From assembly GCA_013373105.1 (NCBI GenBank), contig JABXIJ010000015.1:1-64000 (forward strand): DNA of 64,000 nucleotides, read 5' to 3'. This DNA is from Flavobacteriaceae bacterium (GTDB lineage Bacteria > Bacteroidota > Bacteroidia > Flavobacteriales > Flavobacteriaceae). Below, in pieces: positions 27,447 to 40,497 of this stretch. The position numbers and the translations under genes were made by a program. Every line of letters begins with the position of its first letter. Within the stretch, counting starts at the first letter, position 1. The notes beneath the pieces are model-generated. The model ran no database searches, was not told the DNA's origin, and saw nothing but the letters and a program-made list of their open reading frames with translations.

Positions 27447-28403
27447 TTGCAGCTAAACTTTTCTATAATTATTCCTGTTTACAATCGTCCTCAAGAAATT
27501 GATGAGTTATTAGCTAGTTTAGTTTCTCAAGATTTTGAAGATAATTTTGAAGTGATTATAGTTGAAGATGGTTCTAATGTAACTGCTGAATCAATTGTAA
27601 AAAAGTATACAACACAACTTGAAGTACATTACTTTTTTAAAGAAAATAGTGGAGCAGGAGCTAGTAGAAATTTTGGAATGCAAAAGGCTTCTGGTAACTA
27701 TTTTATTATTTTAGATTCTGATGTTGTACTGCCAAAAAATTACTTAAACATTGTAAAAACACAATTAGAAAATAAGTATACAGATGCTTTTGGTGGACCA
27801 GATGCAGCTCACGAAAACTTTACCCCATTACAAAAAGCCATAAACTATGCTATGACCTCTTTTTTAACAACAGGTGGTATTAGAGGTAAAAAAAATGGTA
27901 TTGGAAAGTTTCAGTTACGCAGCTTTAATTTAGGAATGTCTAAAACAGCATTTGAAGCTACAGAAGGTTTTTCGAGTATGAAAACTGGTGAAGATATAGA
28001 TTTAACTTTTAGACTTTGGGAAAAAGGATTTAAAACACAGTTAATAGCTGAAGCTTTTGTATATCATAAACGAAGAACTTCTCTAAAACAGTTTTTTAAG
28101 CAAACCTTTTCTTTTGGAATTGCTAGACCTATTTTAAATCGAAAATATCCAGAGAGTAGAAAGCTTACCTTTTGGTTTCCAAGTTTATTTATTTTAGGAT
28201 TTGATTTAAGCTTATTGCTTCTTTTGTTTGGTTTTTATGAATTGTTCTTTCTGTTTATAACTTACTTATTTATCCTATTTTTAGATGCTACCTTAAAAAA
28301 TAAAAGCTTTTATGTAGGTTTTTTAAGTATACTTACCTCCTTTACACAATTTTTAGGTTATGGTTTAGGATTTTTAGAATCGCTGTTTTTTAAAAAAAAC
28401 TAA
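27447..28403 (+). CDS. GT-A fold glycosyltransferase family 2 with C-terminal membrane helices
   Basis: The N-terminal 230 residues are a GT2 domain: FSIIIPVYNRPQEIDELL, FEVIIVEDGSN, the DxD-like LDSDVVLP and GFSSMKTGEDIDLTFRLWEKG. Two to three hydrophobic helices follow (about 245-310), so it is anchored in the inner membrane. It probably adds a sugar to a lipid-linked or surface glycan. The TTG at 27447 is the only plausible start; a near-consensus promoter-like TTTG overlaps it. The 3' end overlaps the convergent beta-mannosidase by 4 nt. Confidence 0.85.
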   Translation: MQLNFSIIIPVYNRPQEIDELLASLVSQDFEDNFEVIIVEDGSNVTAESIVKKYTTQLEVHYFFKENSGAGASRNFGMQKASGNYFIILDSDVVLPKNYLNIVKTQLENKYTDAFGGPDAAHENFTPLQKAINYAMTSFLTTGGIRGKKNGIGKFQLRSFNLGMSKTAFEATEGFSSMKTGEDIDLTFRLWEKGFKTQLIAEAFVYHKRRTSLKQFFKQTFSFGIARPILNRKYPESRKLTFWFPSLFILGFDLSLLLLLFGFYELFFLFITYLFILFLDATLKNKSFYVGFLSILTSFTQFLGYGLGFLESLFFKKN

Positions 28404-30844
28404 TAAATTGAATTCAGTGTTTTAATCTGTAAATCAGTTAATGTGTTAGCATCACTTTTATAAAAAATTGTTTTGCTTTCGTTTGGCAGTAAATCAAAAA
28501 AGTTTTCGGAAAAATGGCCTTTAGTTTTTGTATATAAAAAAACATCTTTTTGTAAGACATTACTTTTTAGTGATATAATAAAACCATTGTTGGTTTTAGA
28601 AATTTGTTGATTGATGGTACCCTTTGGTAGTTTTAAATTTTTAGGCTTTTCAAAAAAGTAATTCGATTCTGCTTTCCCAAAAACACTAACCAATACACAA
28701 CTAGTTTTATCAATAGTAGTATTAGGAATGTTATATACTTGTTTACTAGAATTTGGTTCAATGCTTAACACCTTTGTACTCGACCAGATTTCTTTACCGT
28801 AAAAATCAATTATTTTTAATGTTAAGGTGTCTTGTATGCTATTAAAATTATCATTTACAATATAAACACCATATTTTTGTTGTTTCTCTTCTATAGAAAT
28901 TAATGTGTTTTTATAGGCATTTTTAACTTTATAATGTAACGCTTTCCAATTTCCAAAATAATCTAAAGAAGACCAAGAAATTGCTGGCCAACAATCGTTC
29001 AATTGCCAATATAAAGTTCCCATATTGTAGGGTTTTGTTCTTCTTTGGGCTTCAATTCCCATAACAATTCCTTTCGCTTGTAATAACTGACTTACATACA
29101 CATAATCTTCATTCTTAGTTGGTATTTTATAGTCACGTTTCATGTATTCGTTTATGAGTTGAAAACCTCTAGCATGTTTTTGGTGTGATTTTATGGCGTC
29201 TGTTTGCAGATCTATACTATCTTTTTGATTGATGTAATTAATCACTTCAAAACTTGGAAATGCCTGAAAACCAAACTCACTCATAAATCTAGGAACATTA
29301 TTTTGTAAATGCTCAAAAGGATAGGCATCATGCCAAATCCACCAATCATGTGCATCGCCTTCGGTTTTGTATTTTTTATTTCCACGACCAAATTTTGGAG
29401 ATGTTTTCCAATAAGAAGTTTGAGAATATTTTTTTACAACATTGGGTAAAATGCTATCAAAAACAGCAAGGTAATCGTTCCAAATGTCTTGTTTTTCTTT
29501 TTTAGTTCTGTTCGCTTGCCAGCCCCAACGTTTCCAACCTTCTGAGTTTTCGTTATTTCCACACCATAAAGCTATGGATGCATGATTTCGTAATCGTTTA
29601 ACCTGCTGTTCTGCTTCAATTTTAATATTGTTTAAAAATGCATTTTCTCCAGGATACATGGCACAAGCAAACATAAAATCTTGCCAAACTAGAATTCCTT
29701 TTTCATCACACAAATTATAGAAAATATCATTTTCATAAATTCCACCTCCCCAAACACGCAACATATTCATGTTGGCATCAACAGCATCATTTACGATTTT
29801 TTCATAATGTGCATTGGTTACCTTATTCTGAAAGCTATTTTGCGGAATATAGTTGGCACCTTTCATGTAAACAGATTTACCATTTAGTTGAAAGTAAAAC
29901 GACTCCCCAATACTATCTTTTTTTGTAATTAAGTTGATGGTTCTAATTCCATATTTAGTAGAAATACTATCTACTATTTGTTTGTCTTTTTTTACAACAA
30001 CTTTAATATCATACAAATAGGGCTCTCCTAAGTTGTGAGTCCACCATAATTTTGGATTCGAAATTTGAATAGGAATAATTGCATTTTTACTTTCGGAATA
30101 CCATTTAGAATTAACAAATACTTCATAGCTCAGTGCTTCATCTGTTATTTTATCTGCATTTATTGTAAGTTCTAATTCAGCCTTAGTTTCAGTGATTTTA
30201 CTATTTTTTATGTAAACATTGTTAATTTTAAAATCGTTCCAAGCTTTAATAAAAACATCTTTCCAAATTCCTGATGTGTTAAGTTTTGGACCCCAATCCC
30301 AACCATACTGAAATTGCGCTTTTCTAGTATAAACACGTTTTCCTTCTGGAAGTTGGTATGGATTTTTAGTTTCTTTATTCGTTTCAATAGCATCTGTATT
30401 TCTAAAAACGATTCTCAATTCATTTTCATTTTTAACAAACTTTTTAATATTAAATGTCCACTTTCTAAATGCATTATCTGTTTTACCTAAAAGTGAATCA
30501 TTTAAAAATATTGTAGTATAAGTATCTAAACCTTCGAACTCTAATGCAATATTTTTTTTGGCTAATACTTTTTTAGATAGTTTAAAATTGGTTTTGTAAA
30601 TCCAGTCTTTTTTAGAAACCCACTGCACACTATCTTCATTGGTTTTTATAAATGGATCTTTAATGATTTGATTAGAAATTAAGTCTGAGTATATGTTTCC
30701 TGGAACTTTTGCTTGCTGCCAGTTAAGCGTATCTTGTCCTTTAAACTCCCAATTATCATGGAGTTTTATTGCTATAGGAATGTCATTTTTATGTTGACAG
30801 TTCCACAACAAAAACAAAAAAGCGAAAAGATAAAGATTACGCAC
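28400..30844 (-). CDS. Glycoside hydrolase family 2 beta-mannosidase (lipoprotein)
   Basis: The protein has a lipoprotein-type signal (LFLLWNCQHK), an N-terminal sugar-binding/jelly-roll domain (HDNWEFKGQDTLNWQQAKVPGNIYSDL), then the TIM barrel with the acid/base motif WCGNNENSEGW and the nucleophile motif FMSEFGFQAFPS. The 814-residue length and the GNIYSDL start match beta-mannosidases, which cleave the Man-beta-1,4-GlcNAc core of N-glycans. It is the third gene of the GH20-cutC-GH2 operon and overlaps cutC by 8 nt. The specificity within GH2 is inferred from resemblance. Confidence 0.88.
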   Translation of the reverse strand: MRNLYLFAFLFLLWNCQHKNDIPIAIKLHDNWEFKGQDTLNWQQAKVPGNIYSDLISNQIIKDPFIKTNEDSVQWVSKKDWIYKTNFKLSKKVLAKKNIALEFEGLDTYTTIFLNDSLLGKTDNAFRKWTFNIKKFVKNENELRIVFRNTDAIETNKETKNPYQLPEGKRVYTRKAQFQYGWDWGPKLNTSGIWKDVFIKAWNDFKINNVYIKNSKITETKAELELTINADKITDEALSYEVFVNSKWYSESKNAIIPIQISNPKLWWTHNLGEPYLYDIKVVVKKDKQIVDSISTKYGIRTINLITKKDSIGESFYFQLNGKSVYMKGANYIPQNSFQNKVTNAHYEKIVNDAVDANMNMLRVWGGGIYENDIFYNLCDEKGILVWQDFMFACAMYPGENAFLNNIKIEAEQQVKRLRNHASIALWCGNNENSEGWKRWGWQANRTKKEKQDIWNDYLAVFDSILPNVVKKYSQTSYWKTSPKFGRGNKKYKTEGDAHDWWIWHDAYPFEHLQNNVPRFMSEFGFQAFPSFEVINYINQKDSIDLQTDAIKSHQKHARGFQLINEYMKRDYKIPTKNEDYVYVSQLLQAKGIVMGIEAQRRTKPYNMGTLYWQLNDCWPAISWSSLDYFGNWKALHYKVKNAYKNTLISIEEKQQKYGVYIVNDNFNSIQDTLTLKIIDFYGKEIWSSTKVLSIEPNSSKQVYNIPNTTIDKTSCVLVSVFGKAESNYFFEKPKNLKLPKGTINQQISKTNNGFIISLKSNVLQKDVFLYTKTKGHFSENFFDLLPNESKTIFYKSDANTLTDLQIKTLNSIY

Positions 30845-31538
30845 TTTTAATGATTTTAAGAAGTTGTTTTATAGTCTCACAATCAGAGATTGTTTGCATG
30901 GTTTTATCAAAGTAAACAGATGAAGATTTAATAACTTTTGAGGCTGAGGTATGAACTTCTGAAAATCCTGCTTTTTTAAACGCTAGAATATTGTCTGTAT
31001 TTATTCCACTTCCTGGAAGAATACCAATTTTACCATTTGCTATATTGTTTAGACTTTTTAGAGTTTCTATACCATCAATCGCTTTATTTTTTAATCCAGA
31101 AGTTAATACCCTATCAATGCCTAAGTCAATTAACTGTAAAAGTGTTTCTTCAGGGTTCTGTACACAATCAAAGGCTCTATGAAAAGTAAGGGATAGGGGT
31201 TTTGAAAGCTCAACTAATTCCTTTGTTCTTTCAATATCTAAGGTATTATTTTTATTTAAAATTCCTGAAACAATTCCTTTAAAACCTAATTTTTTACATA
31301 AGGTAATATCGCTTTTCATTTGTTGAAACTCATTATCTGTATAGCAAAAATTACCACTTCTAGGTCTAATTAAAACATGCACAGGAATGGTAATTTCTTT
31401 TGAAATTTGATGTAACAAACCATAAGAAGGTGTTAGTCCACCAACAGATAATGCTGAACATAATTCAATTCTGTCAGCATTTGCTTTTTGAGCATTTATA
31501 GCAGATTGATAGGAATTTGCACAGATTTCTAAAAGCAT
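30837..31538 (-). CDS. cutC: CutC family TIM-barrel protein
   Basis: MLLEICANSYQSAINAQKANADRIELCSALSVGGLTPSYGLL, LTFHRAFD, DRVLTSG and LPGSGIN are CutC signatures. The family was named for copper homeostasis, but the evidence for direct copper handling is weak. I use ATG 31538, one base after the GH20 stop, rather than the TTG at 31547. It is sandwiched between GH20 and GH2 genes with an 8-nt overlap to the latter. No signal peptide is present, so it is cytosolic unlike its neighbours. Confidence 0.9.
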   Translation of the reverse strand: MLLEICANSYQSAINAQKANADRIELCSALSVGGLTPSYGLLHQISKEITIPVHVLIRPRSGNFCYTDNEFQQMKSDITLCKKLGFKGIVSGILNKNNTLDIERTKELVELSKPLSLTFHRAFDCVQNPEETLLQLIDLGIDRVLTSGLKNKAIDGIETLKSLNNIANGKIGILPGSGINTDNILAFKKAGFSEVHTSASKVIKSSSVYFDKTMQTISDCETIKQLLKIIKSA

Positions 31539-31539
31539 A

Positions 31540-33792
31540 TTATTCAATAATTATTTCATCTATAAACGTCCAAGCCTTATAACCAGCACCCTGTCTGCCT
31601 TCAGGAATTTTACCATAATTAGGAATGGTAATTTTTAATGAATTGACCTTTTCCTCATCGAACTTTTGAGAAAAGTTAACCAACAGCTCACCATAATTTT
31701 CAATATTAAAATTCATGCTTTTTTCATCATTAAATTGAATTGCAATTTTTTGAGGAGCATAAATCCATTGTCCATTTCCATTATGGAACCTAGTGTTAAT
31801 TTTTTGTATTGAAATTGGTTTTTCAAATTGTATGGTTATTTCTACATCATCACCAGAAAAACCCAACCATTCTACATCTCCATAACGTTTATTATTGCCA
31901 GAAATTCCATTAATTAAAGCTTGCTTTCCACCAGCATTGTAGCTCTTATGAGGTGTTACATTTAATGATATATTGGCGCCAACTGCTTTGTGTATGGTAA
32001 TGGATTCCGTAAACATTCTTCCAAGTTTTTGTTGATTTTCATCAAAAACTGCGGCATTTATTGTCGCTGAATTTGTTATTTCAATAGGAGATTTGTATTC
32101 AATATTCATATTTTCATCTGTTAAAGAGTAAAATATTGTATTGTTGGTTGTAGTGGTTAATTCATAAAAAAGTTTACCATTTTTATTGATTAATTTACCT
32201 TTAATATAATAGATATGATTGGCATAATTAACTTCTTTTTCATCTAAATATTTGTTGAAATAAACGAGTCTTTCTACAAAGTCTTTATAATTTTTTTGCG
32301 TTTTCTTAGTCCACACAACTTCACTTAAAGCAGCTGCTCTAGGTAAAATCATATATTCAATTTGTTCAGGAGTTGTTATGTATTCTGTCCAAACATTTCC
32401 CTGAGCGCCTAATACATATTTACTTTCTTCATTGTTTAATTCAGAAGGAATAGGCTCAAAATTGTACACTTTTTCAAGTGGTAAATAACCCCCAATTGCT
32501 AGAGGTTCATTTTCATCATCAGATTGATAATGATCAAAATAACAATGAGAACCTGGAGTTAAAATTACATCATGATGTTCTTTAGCAGCTTCAACAGCTC
32601 CATTTGTACCACGCCAAGACATCACTGTAGCATTTGGTGCTAAACCACCTTCTAAAATTTCATCCCAACCAATTATTTGTTTGCCTTTAGAATTGATGTA
32701 TTTTTCCATTCTTGTGATGAAATAACTCTGTAACTCATGCTCGTCTTTTAGGCCTTCCTTTTTTATGAGTTGTTGACAATGAGTACAATTTTTCCATCTG
32801 GTTTTTGGGGCTTCATCTCCACCGATATGAATGTATTTACCAGGGAATAAGTTTACCACTTCATCTATAACATTTTCTAGGAACGTAAAAGTGATTTCTT
32901 TAGGGCAGTATATATCTTCGAAAACGCCCCATTTTGTAGCTACCTCAATTTGATTTCCTGTACAACCCAATTCTGGATAAGCAGCAATGGCAGCTTGAGA
33001 ATGGCCAGGCATTTCTATTTCTGGGATTACAGTAATTTGTCGATCTGAAGCATAAGCAACAATTTCTTTAATATCTTCTTGAGTGTAAAATCCACCATAT
33101 TTTTTACCATCAAATTTGTGAGGTTGATCTGAATAATGACCAATTAAAGTTTCGTTTCTAAATGCAGCTATTTCTTGAAGTTTTGGATATTGTTTAATTT
33201 CAATTCGCCAACCTTGATCTTCTGTTAAATGCCAATGAAACGTATTCATTTTTAACATTGCCATCAAGTCTAAGTACTTTTTTATAAAATCAACAGAGAA
33301 AAAATGACGTGCTACATCTAAATGCATACCTCTATAGCTAAACCTAGGAGCATCATTTACAGATATACAATTTATAGCTATGGCTGATTTATTTGTTGCA
33401 TATGGCATTAATTGTAACAAAGATTGTATCGCATAAAAAGCACCTTTTTGTGTTTTAGATTTTATGAGGATTTTATCTTCATTAATGGTTAAATTGTATG
33501 CCTCGTCGTTTTGAAGAGAAGTGTCTAATTGAAACTGAATATCTGCTTCATCACTTGTATTAATTTCAATATCAAATTTTTCAGAAACGTAATTTTTAAA
33601 GTAGTTGACAATTGGTTCCAATTTTTTTACTGCAGAAATTGTTGTGCTTTTACTTAATATAAAAGTTCCTTCACCAAGTACAACTTTATTTGGTTTAGGA
33701 ATTATATTAGCTGGTACTGGTTTGCTAACTTCTGTACAATTATTAAAACAGAATAGAATTACTAAAAGTATGCTATAAATTTGACCTTTCAT
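31540..33792 (-). CDS. GH20 beta-N-acetylhexosaminidase (lipoprotein)
   Basis: A signal peptide ends near a lipobox-like FNNC. An N-terminal GH20b-type domain (PKPNKVVLGEGTFILSK) precedes the catalytic barrel, which contains YRGMHLDVARHFFSVDFIKKYLD and the catalytic Asp-Glu pair in HIGGDEAPKTRW. The C-terminal 130 residues look like a discoidin-type carbohydrate-binding domain (AGGKQALINGISG). The protein should remove terminal beta-linked GlcNAc. It leads the GH20-cutC-GH2 operon and is divergent from GH92 across a 39-nt gap. Confidence 0.93.
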   Translation of the reverse strand: MKGQIYSILLVILFCFNNCTEVSKPVPANIIPKPNKVVLGEGTFILSKSTTISAVKKLEPIVNYFKNYVSEKFDIEINTSDEADIQFQLDTSLQNDEAYNLTINEDKILIKSKTQKGAFYAIQSLLQLMPYATNKSAIAINCISVNDAPRFSYRGMHLDVARHFFSVDFIKKYLDLMAMLKMNTFHWHLTEDQGWRIEIKQYPKLQEIAAFRNETLIGHYSDQPHKFDGKKYGGFYTQEDIKEIVAYASDRQITVIPEIEMPGHSQAAIAAYPELGCTGNQIEVATKWGVFEDIYCPKEITFTFLENVIDEVVNLFPGKYIHIGGDEAPKTRWKNCTHCQQLIKKEGLKDEHELQSYFITRMEKYINSKGKQIIGWDEILEGGLAPNATVMSWRGTNGAVEAAKEHHDVILTPGSHCYFDHYQSDDENEPLAIGGYLPLEKVYNFEPIPSELNNEESKYVLGAQGNVWTEYITTPEQIEYMILPRAAALSEVVWTKKTQKNYKDFVERLVYFNKYLDEKEVNYANHIYYIKGKLINKNGKLFYELTTTTNNTIFYSLTDENMNIEYKSPIEITNSATINAAVFDENQQKLGRMFTESITIHKAVGANISLNVTPHKSYNAGGKQALINGISGNNKRYGDVEWLGFSGDDVEITIQFEKPISIQKINTRFHNGNGQWIYAPQKIAIQFNDEKSMNFNIENYGELLVNFSQKFDEEKVNSLKITIPNYGKIPEGRQGAGYKAWTFIDEIIIE

Positions 33793-33831
33793 TTTTTGTA
33801 TCTTGTGAGCATAAATGTAAGATGTATTTTA

Positions 33832-36744
33832 ATGAAATATAAATTTTTATATGGTTTTATTGCCATATTCATGTTTCTTTCCTGTCAACCAAAAACAGAA
33901 GTTTCTCCAGCAATAAAAGATAAATCCTTAGTTTCTTATGTAAATCCATTTATAGGAACAGGTGGCCATGGACACACATACCCTGGAGCAACTATGCCTT
34001 TTGGGATGATGCAGTTGAGTCCAGATACGCGTCTTGAAGGTTGGGATGGTTGTTCTGGTTATCATTACTCTGATGATGAAATTTTTGGTTTTTCACATAC
34101 ACATTTAAGTGGTACAGGTGTATCTGATTATGGAGATATTTTGTTAATGCCAACCAATAAACCCATTTTTAATAATGGTGCAGATGGAAAAGAAGGTTAC
34201 AAATCTAAATTTTCTCATGACAACGAAATTGCAGAACCTGGTTATTATAAAGTGCATTTAGATGATACCAATATTGATGTAGAGTTGACTGTTTCTAAAC
34301 GAAGTGGAATAAATAAATATCAATTTTCGAATGCGAAAGAAGCTTTTGTAGTATTAGATTTAGCACATAGAGATAAAGTTCTAGATCATAAAATAGAACA
34401 AATGTCTCCAAAAATTATTCAAGGTTACAGACATTCTGAAGCTTGGGCTACCAATCAAAAATTGTTTTATTATATCGAATTTTCTCATGAGTTTACTGTA
34501 AAATACCCCAGTAGTAAAAATCCTCAAAAAGCAATTTTGAGTGTTAAAAACCTTAAAGATGAACCTGTAATTGTTAAAATTGGAATCTCTGCTGTTGATG
34601 TTGAAGGTGCTAAGCAAAACTTGGAAGCTGAAATTGGAAACAAAACCTTTGAAATAGTTAAAAATGAGGCACAACAAACTTGGGAAAAGCAGTTAGAAAA
34701 AGTTGTAGTTGAATCTGAAAATACAGATTATAAAACTAATTTTTATACCTCTATGTATCATGCAATGATTGCCCCAAATTTATATCAAGATGTAGATGGC
34801 AGATACAGAGGAATGGATTTAGAAATTCATAAAACGAATGATTTTGACTATTATACTGTATTCTCACTTTGGGACACTTACAGAGCTGCTCATCCACTAT
34901 ACACAATTATTGAACAGGATAGAACCAATGATTTTATCAATACATTTTTAGCTAAATATGATGAAGGTGGCATTATGCCTATTTGGGATTTAGCAGCTTG
35001 TTATACAGGTTGTATGATTGGTTATCATGCTGTTTCTGTAATAGCTGATGCTTATTTAAAAGGAATTCAAAATTACGATACAGAAAAGGCTTTACAAGCC
35101 ATGATACATTCAGCCACAAGAGATAAACTAGGGTTGGAAAGCTATAAGAAATTCGGATTTATTCCTGTGGAAACTGAAAGTGAATCTGTTTCTAAAACCC
35201 TAGAATATGCTTATGATGATTGGACGATAGCTCAAATGGCAAAAGCGATGGGTAAAAATGAAATTTATAAAACCTTTTCAGTAAGAGCACAGTACTATAA
35301 AAACATTTTTGATCCAGAAACACAGTTTATGAGAGGCCGTTTTAGAAATACTTGGTTTGCACCTTTTGATCCTTATGAAGTAAATTTCAATTACACAGAA
35401 GCCAACTCTTGGCAGTATAGTTTTTATGTACCACAAGACATTTCTGGTTTTATGAAATTGTTAGGAGGCAAGAATGCTTTAGAAAAACATCTAGATAAAC
35501 TTTTTGCTGCAAAACAAGAAACTTCAGGACGAAATCAAGCCGATATTACTGGTTTAATAGGGCAATATGCACATGGTAATGAACCCAGTCATCACATGGC
35601 TTATTTGTACAATTTTGTGAATAAACCCCATAAAACACAAGAAAAAGTACATCAAATACTTACTGAATTGTATACCAACTCACCAGATGGAATTTCTGGT
35701 AATGAAGATTGTGGACAAATGAGTGCTTGGTTTGTATTTTCTTCTTTAGGGTTTTACCCTGTTACACCTGCAAGCAACCAATATATTATTGGGTCACCAT
35801 TATTTAACAAAGCCACTATTAACTTAGAAAATGGTAAACAATTTACAGTATCTGCAAACAATTTAAGTGATAAACATATCTATATAGATAGTGCTTATTT
35901 AAATGGTAAAAAGTTAAACAGAACCTTTCTTAATCACAATGAAATTATTAATGGAGGAGAACTGATTTTTAACATGACAGATAAACCCTCAATTTGGGGT
36001 TCTGAAGAAGGTTTTGAGCCAATTACTGATATTAAAGAGCATCAAATTATACCTGCGCCTTTTATTGCAAAAGGTGAAATTGCCTTTAAAGAAAAAACAC
36101 TTGTAGCATTAAAATCTGTAGTTAGTGCATCTGAAATTTATTATTCTTTAGGAGGTGATTTTAAAAAGTATGAAGAAGCATTTGAGATTTCAGATAAAGC
36201 TACTTTACAAGTGTATGCACAAAATGGAAATCAAAAAAGTGCGGTAATTACCACAGAATTTTATAAGATAGACCCTAATATTAAAATTGTTTTAGCATCA
36301 AAATATGCCAATCAATATAATGCTGGAGGAAACAATGCTTTGATTGATGGAATTACAGGTACAGAAGATTTTAGAACAGGAACTTGGCAAGGCTATTGGA
36401 ATGAAGATGTAATTGCTACAGTAGATTTGGGTAAACAAAAAGAAATTTCTTCAGTAGTTGTTAATTTTTTAAGAGATCAACGTAGTTGGATTTTCTTACC
36501 TACTGAGGTTGCAATTTACCATTCAAAAGATGGGAAATCATTTAAAAAATTAAAAGATTGGAAGGCTCCAAAACCATTCAATACAGATGAAGTTAAAATT
36601 GTTCCCATAGAAATTCAAAAAAAGTTAAACACTAGATTTATTAAAGTCGTTGCCAAAAAACTAGGTAAACTTCCAGAATGGCATTTAGGATATCCTCATG
36701 ATGGAAGATCTTGGATTTTTGTAGACGAAATTCAAATAAAATAA
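33832..36744 (+). CDS. GH92 family alpha-mannosidase (lipoprotein)
   Basis: I begin at ATG 33832, giving a clear lipoprotein signal (FIAIFMFLSCQPK). GH92 landmarks appear in order: YVNPFIGTGGHGHTYPGATMPFGMMQLSPDTR, FSLWDTYRAAHPL, YDDWTIAQMAKAMG, the acid region GNEPSHHMAYLYNF and GNEDCGQMSAWFVFSSLGFYPV. A C-terminal F5/8-type domain (AGGNNALIDGITG) resembles the one on the neighbouring GH20. GH92 enzymes are calcium-dependent inverting exo-alpha-mannosidases acting mainly on high-mannose N-glycans. The linkage specificity cannot be read from sequence. Confidence 0.94.
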   Translation: MKYKFLYGFIAIFMFLSCQPKTEVSPAIKDKSLVSYVNPFIGTGGHGHTYPGATMPFGMMQLSPDTRLEGWDGCSGYHYSDDEIFGFSHTHLSGTGVSDYGDILLMPTNKPIFNNGADGKEGYKSKFSHDNEIAEPGYYKVHLDDTNIDVELTVSKRSGINKYQFSNAKEAFVVLDLAHRDKVLDHKIEQMSPKIIQGYRHSEAWATNQKLFYYIEFSHEFTVKYPSSKNPQKAILSVKNLKDEPVIVKIGISAVDVEGAKQNLEAEIGNKTFEIVKNEAQQTWEKQLEKVVVESENTDYKTNFYTSMYHAMIAPNLYQDVDGRYRGMDLEIHKTNDFDYYTVFSLWDTYRAAHPLYTIIEQDRTNDFINTFLAKYDEGGIMPIWDLAACYTGCMIGYHAVSVIADAYLKGIQNYDTEKALQAMIHSATRDKLGLESYKKFGFIPVETESESVSKTLEYAYDDWTIAQMAKAMGKNEIYKTFSVRAQYYKNIFDPETQFMRGRFRNTWFAPFDPYEVNFNYTEANSWQYSFYVPQDISGFMKLLGGKNALEKHLDKLFAAKQETSGRNQADITGLIGQYAHGNEPSHHMAYLYNFVNKPHKTQEKVHQILTELYTNSPDGISGNEDCGQMSAWFVFSSLGFYPVTPASNQYIIGSPLFNKATINLENGKQFTVSANNLSDKHIYIDSAYLNGKKLNRTFLNHNEIINGGELIFNMTDKPSIWGSEEGFEPITDIKEHQIIPAPFIAKGEIAFKEKTLVALKSVVSASEIYYSLGGDFKKYEEAFEISDKATLQVYAQNGNQKSAVITTEFYKIDPNIKIVLASKYANQYNAGGNNALIDGITGTEDFRTGTWQGYWNEDVIATVDLGKQKEISSVVVNFLRDQRSWIFLPTEVAIYHSKDGKSFKKLKDWKAPKPFNTDEVKIVPIEIQKKLNTRFIKVVAKKLGKLPEWHLGYPHDGRSWIFVDEIQIK

Positions 36745-36750
36745 CAACAC

Positions 36751-37746
36751 ATGAAACGTAGAAACTTTATAAAAAAAGCATCAGTAACAAGTTTAGGATT
36801 AGTAGCAACATCAACTTTAATAAGTTGTGATACTAATAAAGAAAAAGCAACAGTATTACCAACAAAAAAACCAGTTAGACCTTTGGTAATTGCCACTTGG
36901 AATACGCCTTTAGCTGTTGAAACTGCAGCAAAAGTTTTAGAAAATGGCGGTTCAGCTTTAGATGCTGTTGAACAAGGTTGTAGAATAGAGGAAGCTAACG
37001 AAAAAGGGCAATCTGTAGGAAAAGGAGGTTTACCAGATAGAGATGGAAATGTTACATTAGATGCTTGTATTATGAACGACAAAGGTGATTATGGGGCAGT
37101 TTTAGCAGTAAAAGATATTAAGCACGTAATTTCTGTTGCTAGAAAGGTTATGGAAGAAACTCCTCATGTAATGTTAGCAGGTGATGGAGCTAAACAATTT
37201 GCTATTTCACAAGGATTTGAACCTGAAAATCTATTAACAGAAGCTTCTAAAAAGGCTTGGGAAAAATGGAAGGTGAAATCTGAATATAAGCCGATAATCA
37301 ATATCGAAAATCATGATACTATTGGTATGCTAGCTGTTGATAAAGATGGCAATATTTCAGGAGCTTGTACCACTAGTGGTTTAGCCTATAAAATGGCTGG
37401 TAGAGTAGGAGACTCACCAATTATTGGTGGAGGTCTTTTTGTAGATAATGAAGTAGGAGGAGCTACTGCAACTGGTTTAGGAGAAGAGGTGTTAAAAACA
37501 GTAGGTAGTTTTTTAATAGTAGAATTAATGCGTCAAGGAAAATCGCCACAAGAAGCCTGTGAAGAAGCAATTGCTAGAATTGTAAAGAAACCTGGGAAAG
37601 ATTTTAAAAATTTCCAAGTAGCCTATATTGCTGTTAATAAACAAGGTGAAACTGGTGCATATTCTATTCATGAGCATTTTAGTTATAACCTATTTAAAGA
37701 AGGTGAAAACAAAAACATAAAATCAGATTTTTATAATAAATCATAA
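36751..37746 (+). CDS. N4-(beta-N-acetylglucosaminyl)-L-asparaginase (glycosylasparaginase)
   Basis: A twin-arginine-like signal (KRRNFIKKAS) runs into a lipobox-like TLISC, so export of the folded protein as a lipoprotein is likely. The Ntn-hydrolase precursor has NTPLAVETAAKVLENGGSALDAVEQGCR and the self-cleavage site in NHDTIGMLAVD, where the Thr becomes the N-terminal nucleophile of the beta subunit. GGGLFVDNEVGGATATGLGEE follows. This family cleaves the GlcNAc-Asn bond. It starts 6 nt after GH92, so it belongs to the same operon. Confidence 0.93.
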   Translation: MKRRNFIKKASVTSLGLVATSTLISCDTNKEKATVLPTKKPVRPLVIATWNTPLAVETAAKVLENGGSALDAVEQGCRIEEANEKGQSVGKGGLPDRDGNVTLDACIMNDKGDYGAVLAVKDIKHVISVARKVMEETPHVMLAGDGAKQFAISQGFEPENLLTEASKKAWEKWKVKSEYKPIINIENHDTIGMLAVDKDGNISGACTTSGLAYKMAGRVGDSPIIGGGLFVDNEVGGATATGLGEEVLKTVGSFLIVELMRQGKSPQEACEEAIARIVKKPGKDFKNFQVAYIAVNKQGETGAYSIHEHFSYNLFKEGENKNIKSDFYNKS

Positions 37747-37749
37747 ACT

Positions 37750-39057
37750 ATGAGTATTACTAGTAGTAAGTACACCAAAGCTTTTATTTTTTTAACTACC
37801 CTGTTTTTTTTATGGGGATTTATTACAGTACTTGTAGATTCTTTAATACCTAGAATACGTGAGTTATTTACACTAACGTATTTTCAAGCTGGTTTGGTTC
37901 AGTTTGCTTTTTTTGGAGCGTATTTGGTATTGTCTATTCCATCTGGATTTGTACTTTCTAAAATTGGATATAAAAAAGGAATTGTAGTTGGTTTATTGAC
38001 TATGGCAATTGGTTGTTTGTTGTTTTATTCAGCAGCATCTTACAGAAGTTTTTCAGTTTTTTTAGTCGCTTATTTTGTTTTAGCAGGAGGTATTACAATT
38101 TTGCAAGTTGCTGCAAATCCCTATGTGGCTGTTTTAGGTGAAGAACAAAAAGCCTCAAGTCGTTTAAATCTTGCACAAGCGTTTAATTCTTTAGGTACAG
38201 CTATAGCTCCAGCTTTTGGAGCCTTATTTTTATTGAGTGATTCAATAAAATCTTCCTTAGAAATAAATGCATTATCTGAGACAGCCAAAGAAGCTTACTA
38301 TTTTAAAGAAGCTGCTGCTGTACAAACTCCGTTTTTAGCCTTAGCTTTTTTTGTTTTTTTCTTAGCTATTGTATTCAGTTTTGTAAAATTACCTATCATT
38401 TTAAATGAAGCACCAAAACATGGTTACGCTCAGTTGTTACAAAAAAAGTCTTTAGTTATGGGGGCAATTGGAATTTTTATTTATGTAGGAGCAGAGGTTG
38501 CTATTGGTAGTTATTTAGTAAATTATTTAGATAGTTTAAATTTAGCTACTGTTATTAGACAGAGCGATTTTTTATCTTCAATAGTAAAGTTTGTGCTTGG
38601 AGATGAATTAACTTCTATTGATAATTATGGTATTCTGGGTGCCTTTGTAACTTTATATTGGAGTGGTGCAATGATAGGTAGATTTATAGGAGCATATCTT
38701 ACACAAAAAATTAAACCATCTAAAGTTTTAATGCAGTTTGCAATAGGTGCAATAATGCTTGTAATTATCTCATTAAATTCAACTGGTTTATTATCGATGT
38801 TTACAATTTTAGCAGTAGGTTTATTTAATTCAATAATGTTCCCTACCATTTTTACATTGAGTCTTGAAGGTTTAGAAGAGTTAAAACCTCAAGCATCTGG
38901 ATTGCTATGTACGATGATTGTTGGAGGAGCAATTATTCCACCAATGTTTGGTTACTTAACAGATGTTTTTGGATTTCAAATGGCCCTAACTTTAATAGTG
39001 CTATGCTATTTTTATATATTTAATTTTGGTAGAATTAAAACAAAATTGAATACTTAG
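37750..39057 (+). CDS. Sugar MFS transporter (FHS family, NagP/GluP-like)
   Basis: The 435-residue protein has twelve predicted membrane helices. FLWGFITVLVDSLIPRIRELF, SIPSGFVLSKIGYKKGI and SRLNLAQAFNSLGTAIAP are typical of the fucose/glucose-galactose/N-acetylglucosamine (FHS) permeases. It starts 3 nt after the glycosylasparaginase, so it probably imports the sugars released by this locus (GlcNAc and/or mannose). The exact substrate is an inference from context. It converges with the decarboxylase gene 3 nt away. Confidence 0.9.
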   Translation: MSITSSKYTKAFIFLTTLFFLWGFITVLVDSLIPRIRELFTLTYFQAGLVQFAFFGAYLVLSIPSGFVLSKIGYKKGIVVGLLTMAIGCLLFYSAASYRSFSVFLVAYFVLAGGITILQVAANPYVAVLGEEQKASSRLNLAQAFNSLGTAIAPAFGALFLLSDSIKSSLEINALSETAKEAYYFKEAAAVQTPFLALAFFVFFLAIVFSFVKLPIILNEAPKHGYAQLLQKKSLVMGAIGIFIYVGAEVAIGSYLVNYLDSLNLATVIRQSDFLSSIVKFVLGDELTSIDNYGILGAFVTLYWSGAMIGRFIGAYLTQKIKPSKVLMQFAIGAIMLVIISLNSTGLLSMFTILAVGLFNSIMFPTIFTLSLEGLEELKPQASGLLCTMIVGGAIIPPMFGYLTDVFGFQMALTLIVLCYFYIFNFGRIKTKLNT

Positions 39058-39060
39058 TAA

Positions 39061-40497
39061 CTATTTTTCTTTTATTAGCTCTTTACCAATTTTTTCACAA
39101 GCATTAATGGTTTGTTTGATATCTGCAAAAGAAGTTCTAGGATTAATAAGACACATTCGTAATACTACTTGTTTTTGTAAAACTGTGGTTACTAACATGG
39201 CTTCTTTGGTATTGATGATTTCTTCAGAAATTTTTTGATTTAATTCGTCTAATTTCTTTTCACTAAAGTTATATTCAATTGGATTGAATCTAAAATTTAT
39301 TATGCCTAAGGTTGCTGGTGAAACAATTTCCCAATATTTACTTTTTCTTAGTGAATCTTCAGTTTTTTCTGCAATACTTAAAGAATAATCAATGGCTTTT
39401 CTAAACGATTCTAAACCAAAAGTTTTAATAGACATGTATAGTTTTAAAGCCCTAAATCTTCTTGTTAACTGAATACCATGATCGTAAAAGTTAATCTCAG
39501 AAGTATTGCCTTCAATATCTCTTAAATACTCTGGTTTTTCTGTAAAAGTTTTACTTAGCCATTTATGATTTCGTACTAATAAACAGCCCATTTCATAAGG
39601 CTGAAAAAACCATTTATGAGGATCTACAGTTATAGAATCTGCTTTTTGAATTCCATTTAGTAGTTTACTTCCATTTTTGGCTAAAATTACAGCACCACCA
39701 TAAGCAGCATCTATATGAAACCATAGTTTTTCTTCTTTACAAATCTTAGCTATTTCATTTAATGGATCTACAGTTCCTGTATTAGTTGCTCCTGCAGTTC
39801 CAATAATACAAAAGGGTTTTAAACCTGCTAACCTGTCTTTAGCAATTGCGTTTTTAAGTTTGTTAATAGATACACGAAATTCAAGATCAGTAGGAATAAT
39901 TCGTACTTGCTCCTTTTTAAAACCAATGGTTCTTATTGCTTTTATATTTGATGAGTGTGTTTGATCAGATAAATAAATAACTGCTTTCGAAAAATCATCT
40001 CCACATTTTTGTCTTCTAGCAGTAACTAAAGCTGTTAAATTAGCCATAGAACCACCACTAGTAAAAATTCCACCACCTTTTTTGGTAGGTAATTTAAATA
40101 AGTTTAACAACCAATTTATGGTAACTATTTCAAGTTCTGCAGCAGCAGGTGCATTTACCCATCCACCAGAAAAAACATTAAACCCTGTTGCTAAAGTATC
40201 TGCTAGTACACTAACATAGTTACTTGGCCCTGGAACAAATGAATAATTTTTTGGATGCGATAAAATATCAGTCTTATCTAATACTTCATTTAAAACTTTA
40301 TCTAAAACTTTAGTACCATCTTCACCTTTTTCTGGAGCTTGCTCTAAAAAAAGTTTATCCATTTCTTCTCTACTAGCATTGTAAACAGGACTTTTTTGGT
40401 TTTGAGTTTCAAAATGATCTACTATAGCATCTATAACTTTATAGCCATAAGTTTTCATTTCCTCTTTAGTTAATGATAAAGTTGGATTGGCTTTCAT
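39061..40497 (-). CDS. PLP-dependent group II (aromatic-L-amino-acid-type) decarboxylase
   Basis: The PLP lysine lies in SITVDPHKWFFQPYEMGCLLV, with the aspartate motif HIDAAYGGAVIL and FTSGGSMANLTALVTAR before it, all typical of group II decarboxylases. At 478 residues the length fits this group. Substrates in the group include DOPA, tryptophan, tyrosine, 2,4-diaminobutyrate and others, and cannot be chosen from sequence here. It is monocistronic. An inverted repeat lies 37-63 nt upstream of its start. Confidence 0.88.
   Translation of the reverse strand: MKANPTLSLTKEEMKTYGYKVIDAIVDHFETQNQKSPVYNASREEMDKLFLEQAPEKGEDGTKVLDKVLNEVLDKTDILSHPKNYSFVPGPSNYVSVLADTLATGFNVFSGGWVNAPAAAELEIVTINWLLNLFKLPTKKGGGIFTSGGSMANLTALVTARRQKCGDDFSKAVIYLSDQTHSSNIKAIRTIGFKKEQVRIIPTDLEFRVSINKLKNAIAKDRLAGLKPFCIIGTAGATNTGTVDPLNEIAKICKEEKLWFHIDAAYGGAVILAKNGSKLLNGIQKADSITVDPHKWFFQPYEMGCLLVRNHKWLSKTFTEKPEYLRDIEGNTSEINFYDHGIQLTRRFRALKLYMSIKTFGLESFRKAIDYSLSIAEKTEDSLRKSKYWEIVSPATLGIINFRFNPIEYNFSEKKLDELNQKISEEIINTKEAMLVTTVLQKQVVLRMCLINPRTSFADIKQTINACEKIGKELIKEK

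What the first reader, a model, noticed from the sequence alone, without database searches (positions are those of the whole stretch)
28400..39057. Compact divergent island that could dismantle N-linked glycans
Seen: GH20, cutC and GH2 beta-mannosidase run one way, and GH92 alpha-mannosidase, glycosylasparaginase and an FHS sugar permease run the other way from a 39-nt gap. Spacings are 1-6 nt or overlaps throughout. Known: GH92 trims alpha-mannose, GH2 beta-mannosidase cuts Man-beta-GlcNAc, GH20 cuts GlcNAc-beta-GlcNAc, and glycosylasparaginase cuts GlcNAc-Asn. Together they mirror the lysosomal route for high-mannose N-glycans. Inference: all four hydrolases have signal peptides with a lipobox-like cysteine and the permease imports the freed sugars. 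What is missing is notable: no SusC/SusD, no endoglycosidase and no regulator, so it would work on small glyco-asparagine or glycopeptide fragments and not on intact glycoprotein.
Basis: partly seen in the sequence, partly recalled or inferred. Interest (0 to 1): 0.72.

Follow-up and report, generated by a model that had tools for sequence, protein, structure and literature searches.

The report
Flavobacterial N-glycan-core island, with CutC partner
A six-gene island in a Polaribacter-like marine bacterium very likely strips the sugar core of eukaryotic glycoproteins down to single sugars and aspartate, and its supposed 'copper' gene cutC proves to be the constant genetic partner of the last enzyme across the phylum, a lead to the function of a protein that humans also have.

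Summary
The six genes are real and correctly identified. GH2 matches BtMan2A beta-mannosidase, GH20 matches the chitobiose-cleaving BT0459, and the asparaginase keeps the catalytic and Trp residues of Elizabethkingia glycosylasparaginase (AGA). The same island recurs across the genus, and the same gene set recurs, reshuffled, in other families, so N-glycan-core dismantling is well supported. Corrections: the GH92 lacks the His-Glu motif of alpha-1,2-mannosidases and is the only GH92 in the genome, so 'high-mannose' is doubtful. AGA is a Tat substrate whose lipobox Cys is not conserved. No GH18, GH85, GH125, NagA or NagB was found in the genome, so the fate of GlcNAc is open. In 297 Bacteroidota genomes, 85 of 93 with cutC also have AGA, and in 45 the two lie within 11.1 kb, mostly adjacent, across 26 genera and 11 families. 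Published tags place cutC beside an asparaginase at the Xanthomonas N-glycan cluster, where it was read as copper resistance. I propose that CutC, whose model resembles sugar-phosphate TIM-barrel enzymes, processes a product of GlcNAc-Asn breakdown; this is inferred and untested. The island is a new variant of a known kind; the CutC link is the interesting part.

The parts
28400..30844 (-). GH2 exo-beta-mannosidase, signal peptide with conserved Cys (GTG start); cleaves Man-beta-1,4-GlcNAc (inferred)
   Evidence: Best PDB hits are BtMan2A chains, E 7e-197, over residues 20-796, with both catalytic Glu aligned (Glu432, Glu523); mannosidase Ig domains; Cys in 8/8 orthologues
30837..31538 (-). 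CutC, cytoplasmic TIM barrel, no signal peptide; proposed to act on an AGA product (inferred)
   Evidence: Pfam CutC 9e-73; model pLDDT 93.9, TM about 0.94 to Shigella and human CutC, then sugar-phosphate aldolase/isomerase folds; linked to AGA across Bacteroidota
31540..33792 (-). GH20 beta-N-acetylhexosaminidase, signal peptide with conserved Cys; cleaves GlcNAc-beta-1,4-GlcNAc (inferred)
   Evidence: Full-length match to 6q63 (BT0459), E 1e-186; catalytic Asp326-Glu327 in HIGGDE; Cys in 18/18 orthologues
33793..33831 (.). 39-nt divergent intergenic gap; no convincing promoter found inside it
33832..36744 (+). GH92 exo-alpha-mannosidase with C-terminal F5/8-type domain; alpha-1,3 or mixed linkage more likely than alpha-1,2
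   Evidence: Pfam GH92N + GH92 + F5_F8_type_C; best PDB hits 6f8z (BT3130), 7zgm (plant N-glycan alpha-1,3-mannosidase), 6f91 (BT3965); lacks the His584-Glu585 motif of BT3990; only GH92 in the genome
36751..37746 (+). Glycosylasparaginase (AGA), Ntn hydrolase with twin-arginine signal; GlcNAc-Asn to Asp plus GlcNAc(-NH2)
   Evidence: 3ljq/1p4k E 7e-110; Trp50, Thr190, Thr208, Arg218 and Asp221 retained; isoaspartyl peptidases score far lower
37750..39057 (+). FHS-family MFS sugar permease, GluP-like
   Evidence: TIGR01272 gluP 264.7 bits over cut-off 202.55; below the cut-offs for fucP and NagP; FucP structure 3o7q E 5e-64

Best explanation
The island encodes an exo-acting pathway that takes the N-glycan core apart from its non-reducing end. 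GH92 removes alpha-mannose, GH2 removes the beta-mannose, GH20 splits chitobiose, and AGA cuts GlcNAc-Asn into aspartate and GlcNAc (first as its 1-amine). The GHs are lipoproteins and AGA is Tat-exported, so this happens in the periplasm or at the cell surface on glyco-asparagine or short glycopeptides. The FHS permease imports a freed hexose. CutC, cytoplasmic, is part of the same pathway and not a copper gene; most likely it processes an imported product of the AGA step. Shown: gene identities, catalytic residues, recurrence of the gene set, and the AGA-CutC linkage. Inferred: substrates, order of action, compartments, co-regulation, and everything about CutC chemistry. The confidence given is for the N-glycan-core pathway; that CutC takes part in it I put at about 0.55.
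For: Family and PDB matches with catalytic residues; BT0459 cleaves N-glycan chitobiose; the island recurs across the genus; in other families of the order the same genes form differently ordered clusters, with a ROK sugar kinase and TonB receptors in L061 (CutC-GH2-AGA-GH20-ROK-GH92). All 19 cutC genomes among 59 relatives have AGA, and 16/16 with both on one contig have them within 13.1 kb. In 297 Bacteroidota, 85/93 cutC genomes have AGA and 45 have the two within 11.1 kb, where chance would give under one. The gene pair persists in otherwise unrelated neighbourhoods. In Xanthomonas, cutC XAC3091 and an asparaginase XAC3092 lie by the nix N-glycan cluster.
Against: A single GH92 without the alpha-1,2 motif, and no GH125, cannot be expected to demannosylate Man9 completely. 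NagA and NagB were not found, so the use of GlcNAc is unexplained. AGA of Elizabethkingia also hydrolyses free Asn, so an asparagine-scavenging role is possible. No expression data exist; the two operons may not be co-induced. CutC has no signal peptide while AGA is exported, so CutC could only act after import. About half of cutC genomes have cutC away from AGA, many in draft assemblies.
Confidence: 0.72

Rival explanations
1. The hydrolases serve N-glycan degradation, but CutC is an unrelated passenger (copper or general function) whose neighbourhood with AGA reflects ancestral gene order only.
For: In the Maribacter/Muricauda-type clade the AGA-CutC pair sits in a conserved housekeeping region, consistent with vertical inheritance; cutC occurs without a nearby AGA in many genomes, and E. 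coli has cutC.
Against: The pair occurs in several orientations (28 divergent-adjacent, 23 AGA>CutC, some CutC>AGA) and in unrelated neighbourhoods in 26 genera and 11 families; all 19 cutC genomes near the window have AGA; a similar pairing is reported in a gammaproteobacterium.
Confidence: 0.3
2. The island degrades alpha-mannan or gluco/galactomannan and chitooligosaccharides rather than N-glycans; AGA acts as an asparaginase for nitrogen.
For: GH92, GH2 and GH20 each have non-N-glycan substrates; EmAGA also accepts Asn; BT3130 of the nearest GH92 clade acts on yeast mannan.
Against: No endo-mannanase or chitinase lies in the island, and no GH18 in the genome; BT0459 and BtMan2A homologues with AGA are the set that fits an N-glycan core; the AGA-type Trp50 is retained.
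Confidence: 0.12
3. A complete lysosome-like high-mannose (Man9GlcNAc2-Asn) pathway.
For: All bond types of the core are covered by the four hydrolase families.
Against: The only GH92 lacks the alpha-1,2 motif; no GH125; relatives carry two or three GH92 genes in the island, this genome only one; GH38 not tested.
Confidence: 0.2

Closest known systems
Xanthomonas nix N-glycan cluster (nixD-L) with nearby asparaginase XAC3092 and cutC XAC3091 (PMC5700972, PMC6718126)
   Same: Exo-hydrolases for the N-glycan core, beta-mannosidase, asparaginase and cutC in one region
   Different: Xanthomonas has a TonB receptor, fucosidase, beta-galactosidase and a nag catabolic cluster; this island has none inside it, and no NagA or NagB was found in the genome
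B. thetaiotaomicron N-glycan enzymes (GH20s BT0456, BT0459, BT0460; BtMan2A) (PMC10154615, PMC9522356)
   Same: GH2 and GH20 are closest, among solved structures, to BtMan2A and BT0459
   Different: The Bacteroides systems use endoglycosidases and SusC/D uptake; here neither lies in the island and GH18/GH85 were not found in the genome; no glycosylasparaginase is described for those loci in the papers read
Elizabethkingia meningoseptica glycosylasparaginase (3ljq, 1p4k)
   Same: Same family, catalytic Thr, Trp and binding residues
   Different: Window AGA has a Tat signal followed by a lipobox-like Cys; in the related loci L063/L064 (AGA 91-92% identical to Elizabethkingia) cutC and GH2 lie close by but without this island's order
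Lacticaseibacillus casei 6'FN-Asn pathway with AsnA2 (PMC6960285)
   Same: Catabolism of GlcNAc-Asn by a glycosylasparaginase
   Different: Cytoplasmic, fucosylated substrate, 28% identity to the flavobacterial enzyme, no GH92/GH2/GH20 described

Membership tests
Glycosylasparaginase (EC 3.5.1.26) | Ntn fold with autoproteolytic Asp-Thr site and catalytic Thr | tested here: met
   HD-T190 aligned to D151-T152 of EmAGA; invariant in 12 orthologues
Glycosylasparaginase (EC 3.5.1.26) | Substrate-site Trp11, Arg180, Asp183 of EmAGA | tested here: met
   Trp50, Arg218, Asp221, all invariant in A1
Glycosylasparaginase (EC 3.5.1.26) | Activity on GlcNAc-Asn | not testable with these tools
   Needs enzyme assay
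GH2 exo-beta-mannosidase | BtMan2A-type domains and both catalytic Glu | tested here: met
   E 7e-197 over 777 residues, Glu432 and Glu523 aligned
GH20 beta-hexosaminidase | Catalytic Asp-Glu pair and GH20 domains | tested here: met
   HIGGDE, Pfam 8.5e-128, full-length match to BT0459
GH92 alpha-1,2-mannosidase subgroup | His-Glu motif (584-585 in BT3990) in the 580-loop | tested here: not met
   BT3990 has ..VIHEI..; the window aligns ..GRNQA.. with a gap
GH92 exo-alpha-mannosidase | GH92 N- and catalytic domains with general acid Glu and base Asp | tested here: met
Sus-type polysaccharide utilization locus | Adjacent SusC/SusD pair | tested here: not met
   None in the island; SusC hits are on other contigs
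Bacterial N-glycan utilization cluster | Co-located enzymes covering the core linkages | tested here: met
   GH92, GH2, GH20 and AGA in two divergent operons, conserved in relatives
Bacterial N-glycan utilization cluster | Endoglycosidase or PNGase for release from protein | tested here: inconclusive
   GH18 and GH85 not found in the genome; PNGase F C-domain search had no positive control; other PNGase types not searched
Bacterial N-glycan utilization cluster | Growth on or induction by N-glycan substrates | not testable with these tools
   Needs culture and transcription data
CutC (PF03932) | CutC sequence family and TIM-barrel fold | tested here: met
CutC (PF03932) | Role in copper homeostasis | not tested
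   Copper binding not assayed; in E. coli the cutC region also encodes the sRNA MicL, so deletion effects are confounded (PMC8216713)

The most novel reading that the evidence does not exclude
CutC, annotated widely, in humans too, as a copper-homeostasis protein, is in fact an enzyme of glycoprotein catabolism that handles an AGA product (for example 1-amino-GlcNAc or a phosphorylated derivative), perhaps as part of a GlcNAc route that does not need NagA and NagB.
Probability: 0.4. Interest if true: 0.8.

Novelty: new variant of a known kind. Interest (0 to 1): 0.55.

Why it matters
N-glycans are a large, little-studied carbon and nitrogen source in the sea. This island suggests a marine flavobacterium can finish their breakdown, down to aspartate, without an endoglycosidase or Sus uptake system in the locus. 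More broadly, the tight AGA-CutC linkage offers a direct, testable clue to the biochemical role of CutC, a protein found from bacteria to humans whose copper annotation is doubtful.

Tried and rejected
PNGase F C-domain search rang in no control genome, so its zero is not evidence. Promoter scans: sigma-70-like sites no more than chance; one TAnnTTTG (-7-like) at 33776-33783 on + without a TTG at the right spacing; no promoter claim made. Considered and dropped: GH2 as galactosidase or glucuronidase (NCBIfam scores far below cut-offs; BtMan2A match); AGA as isoaspartyl peptidase (bits 129 vs 370). The Fisher test for AGA-CutC co-occurrence ignores phylogeny; I rely on adjacency in unrelated neighbourhoods instead. 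The 79 loci include loci picked for CutC and for closeness, so they show arrangements, not rates; rates come. Four genomes counted as cutC without AGA at E<=1e-50 (G147, G170, G181, G205) do hold AGA in the fetched cutC stretch. Papers on Xanthomonas nix (Dupoiron 2015) and B. theta complex N-glycans (Briliute 2019) are not held. Not run for lack of searches: GH38, NagB-II, other PNGases, ROK kinase, PMI in the own genome; NagB across relatives.

Full report
Observation. The six ORFs exist at the stated coordinates. With better starts, CutC is 30837-31538 and GH92 is 33832-36744, so the divergent gap is 33793-33831, exactly 39 nt. The spacings are an 8-nt overlap (GH2/cutC), 1 nt (cutC/GH20), 6 nt (GH92/AGA) and 3 nt (AGA/permease). 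Pfam, NCBIfam and PDB searches give GH2 (BtMan2A type), CutC, GH20, GH92 with a C-terminal F5/8 domain, glycosylasparaginase, and a GluP-like FHS permease.

Enzyme tests. GH2 aligns to BtMan2A over 777 residues (E 7e-197) with both catalytic Glu. GH20 aligns full length to 6q63, which is BT0459. BT0459 is reported to cleave N-glycan chitobiose (PMC9522356) and antennary GlcNAc (PMC10154615). AGA matches the Elizabethkingia enzyme at 370 bits against 129 for isoaspartyl peptidases, and keeps residues that mutagenesis found essential there, including Trp11 and Thr152 (window Trp50 and Thr190). GH92 is closest to BT3130, the plant-N-glycan alpha-1,3-mannosidase 7zgm and BT3965. The BT3130/BT3965 clade is described as alpha-1,3 or mixed except BT3965, which is alpha-1,4 (PMC5930347; 7zgm). 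The alpha-1,2 His584-Glu585 motif of BT3990 falls on VIHEI in the alignment and is missing in the window protein. It is the only GH92 in the genome, while several relatives carry two or three in the island.

Location. The signal-sequence Cys is conserved in orthologues of GH2 (8/8), GH20 (18/18) and GH92 (42/44), supporting lipoproteins. AGA has a conserved twin-arginine motif but a Cys in only 71/105. SignalP could not be run.

Context. The genome is 2.37 Mb, 99.9% complete. No GH18, GH85, GH125 or NagB was found, with controls ringing. For NagA the best hit is 31 bits against a cut-off of 225.65. SusC/SusD exist elsewhere; the loci examined held alpha-glucan and sulfatase genes. The island therefore looks exo-only and dependent on small glycopeptides or glyco-asparagine. 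How GlcNAc is used is unexplained; GH38, NagB-II and sugar kinases were not searched.

Recurrence. AGA occurs in 28 of 59 related genomes. Between GT2 and YidC the same GH2-CutC-GH20 / GH92-AGA-FHS order is found again and again; some genomes lack single genes or have a second GH92. In other families of the order the genes cluster in other orders. In L061 the run is two TonB receptors, CutC, GH2, AGA, GH20, a ROK sugar kinase and GH92. This recurrence in different orders is the main evidence that the genes form one pathway. The closest named genomes in the AGA search are Polaribacter (up to 86% identity), hence 'Polaribacter-like'.

CutC. Among the 59 relatives, cutC is in 19 genomes and all 19 have AGA. 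In all 16 with both on one contig they are within 13.1 kb. Among 60 named loci of at least 18 kb around AGA, cutC is the commonest of the tested neighbours (34), ahead of GH92 (28) and FHS (27). In 297 Bacteroidota genomes, cutC is in 93, AGA in 141, both in 85 (Fisher p about 1e-26, phylogeny ignored). In 45 the two are within 11.1 kb, in 26 genera and 11 families; from genome sizes I would expect fewer than one by chance. Four of the eight apparent exceptions do hold AGA in the fetched cutC stretch. The pair occurs divergent, AGA-first and CutC-first, in otherwise unrelated neighbourhoods. AGAs of 91-92% identity to the Elizabethkingia enzyme also lie next to cutC (L063, L064). Published locus tags put cutC XAC3091 and asparaginase XAC3092 at the Xanthomonas nix cluster; the authors listed cutC under copper (PMC6718126; PMC5700972). 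I found no paper in the held library that links CutC to glycosylasparaginase functionally.

What CutC may do. The model (pLDDT 93.9) matches Shigella and human CutC at TM about 0.94. The next folds are MfnB with PRPP, KDPG aldolase, HisA/PriA and ribulose-phosphate epimerase, which are sugar-phosphate TIM barrels. From general biochemistry (my own knowledge), AGA first releases 1-amino-GlcNAc, a glycosylamine that persists longer at alkaline pH such as that of seawater, and HisA-type barrels act on glycosylamines; this makes a glycosylamine or its phosphate a candidate substrate. That is inference only. In E. coli the cutC region also produces MicL sRNA, so its deletion phenotypes are confounded.

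Verdict. The island is a variant of known bacterial N-glycan clusters. The AGA-CutC module is the more interesting result and is directly testable.

Noticed in passing
window 36121-36738 (GH92 C-terminal part): Residues about 765-970 of the GH92 match the C-terminal region of the GH20 BT0459 structure 6q63 (E 8e-19), so GH92 and the GH20 relative share a homologous C-terminal module.
   Followed up: no
whole genome G000: No NagB (PF01182) and no NagA (TIGR00221) although the island should release two GlcNAc per glycan; most of the genus also lacks NagA over 200 bits.
   Followed up: partly
L075, L054, L078: The island appears to decay in steps: split GH20 and cutC in L075, a short GH92 remnant beside AGA in L054, AGA alone in L078.
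   Followed up: no
L083, L090, L094, L096, L121: A different FHS-like permease (about 30% identity to the window one) sits beside AGA in several genomes, suggesting transporter replacement at the same site.
   Followed up: no
L049: AGA and the permease lie in this genome without GH92 in the 20-kb stretch, and cutC is about 13 kb away on the same contig.
   Followed up: no
window 27447-28403 (+): A family-2 glycosyltransferase ends 4 nt inside the GH2 gene (convergent overlap); it flanks the island in many relatives but is probably not part of it.
   Followed up: no
window 39061-40497 (-): A PLP-dependent decarboxylase ends 3 nt past the permease stop, convergent with the island.
   Followed up: no
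L155, L157, L166, L167, L191: In one genus cutC keeps a fixed place beside KASIII and an ABC gene; in L191 an AGA gene sits directly next to cutC there, so AGA was gained or lost at a fixed cutC site.
   Followed up: partly
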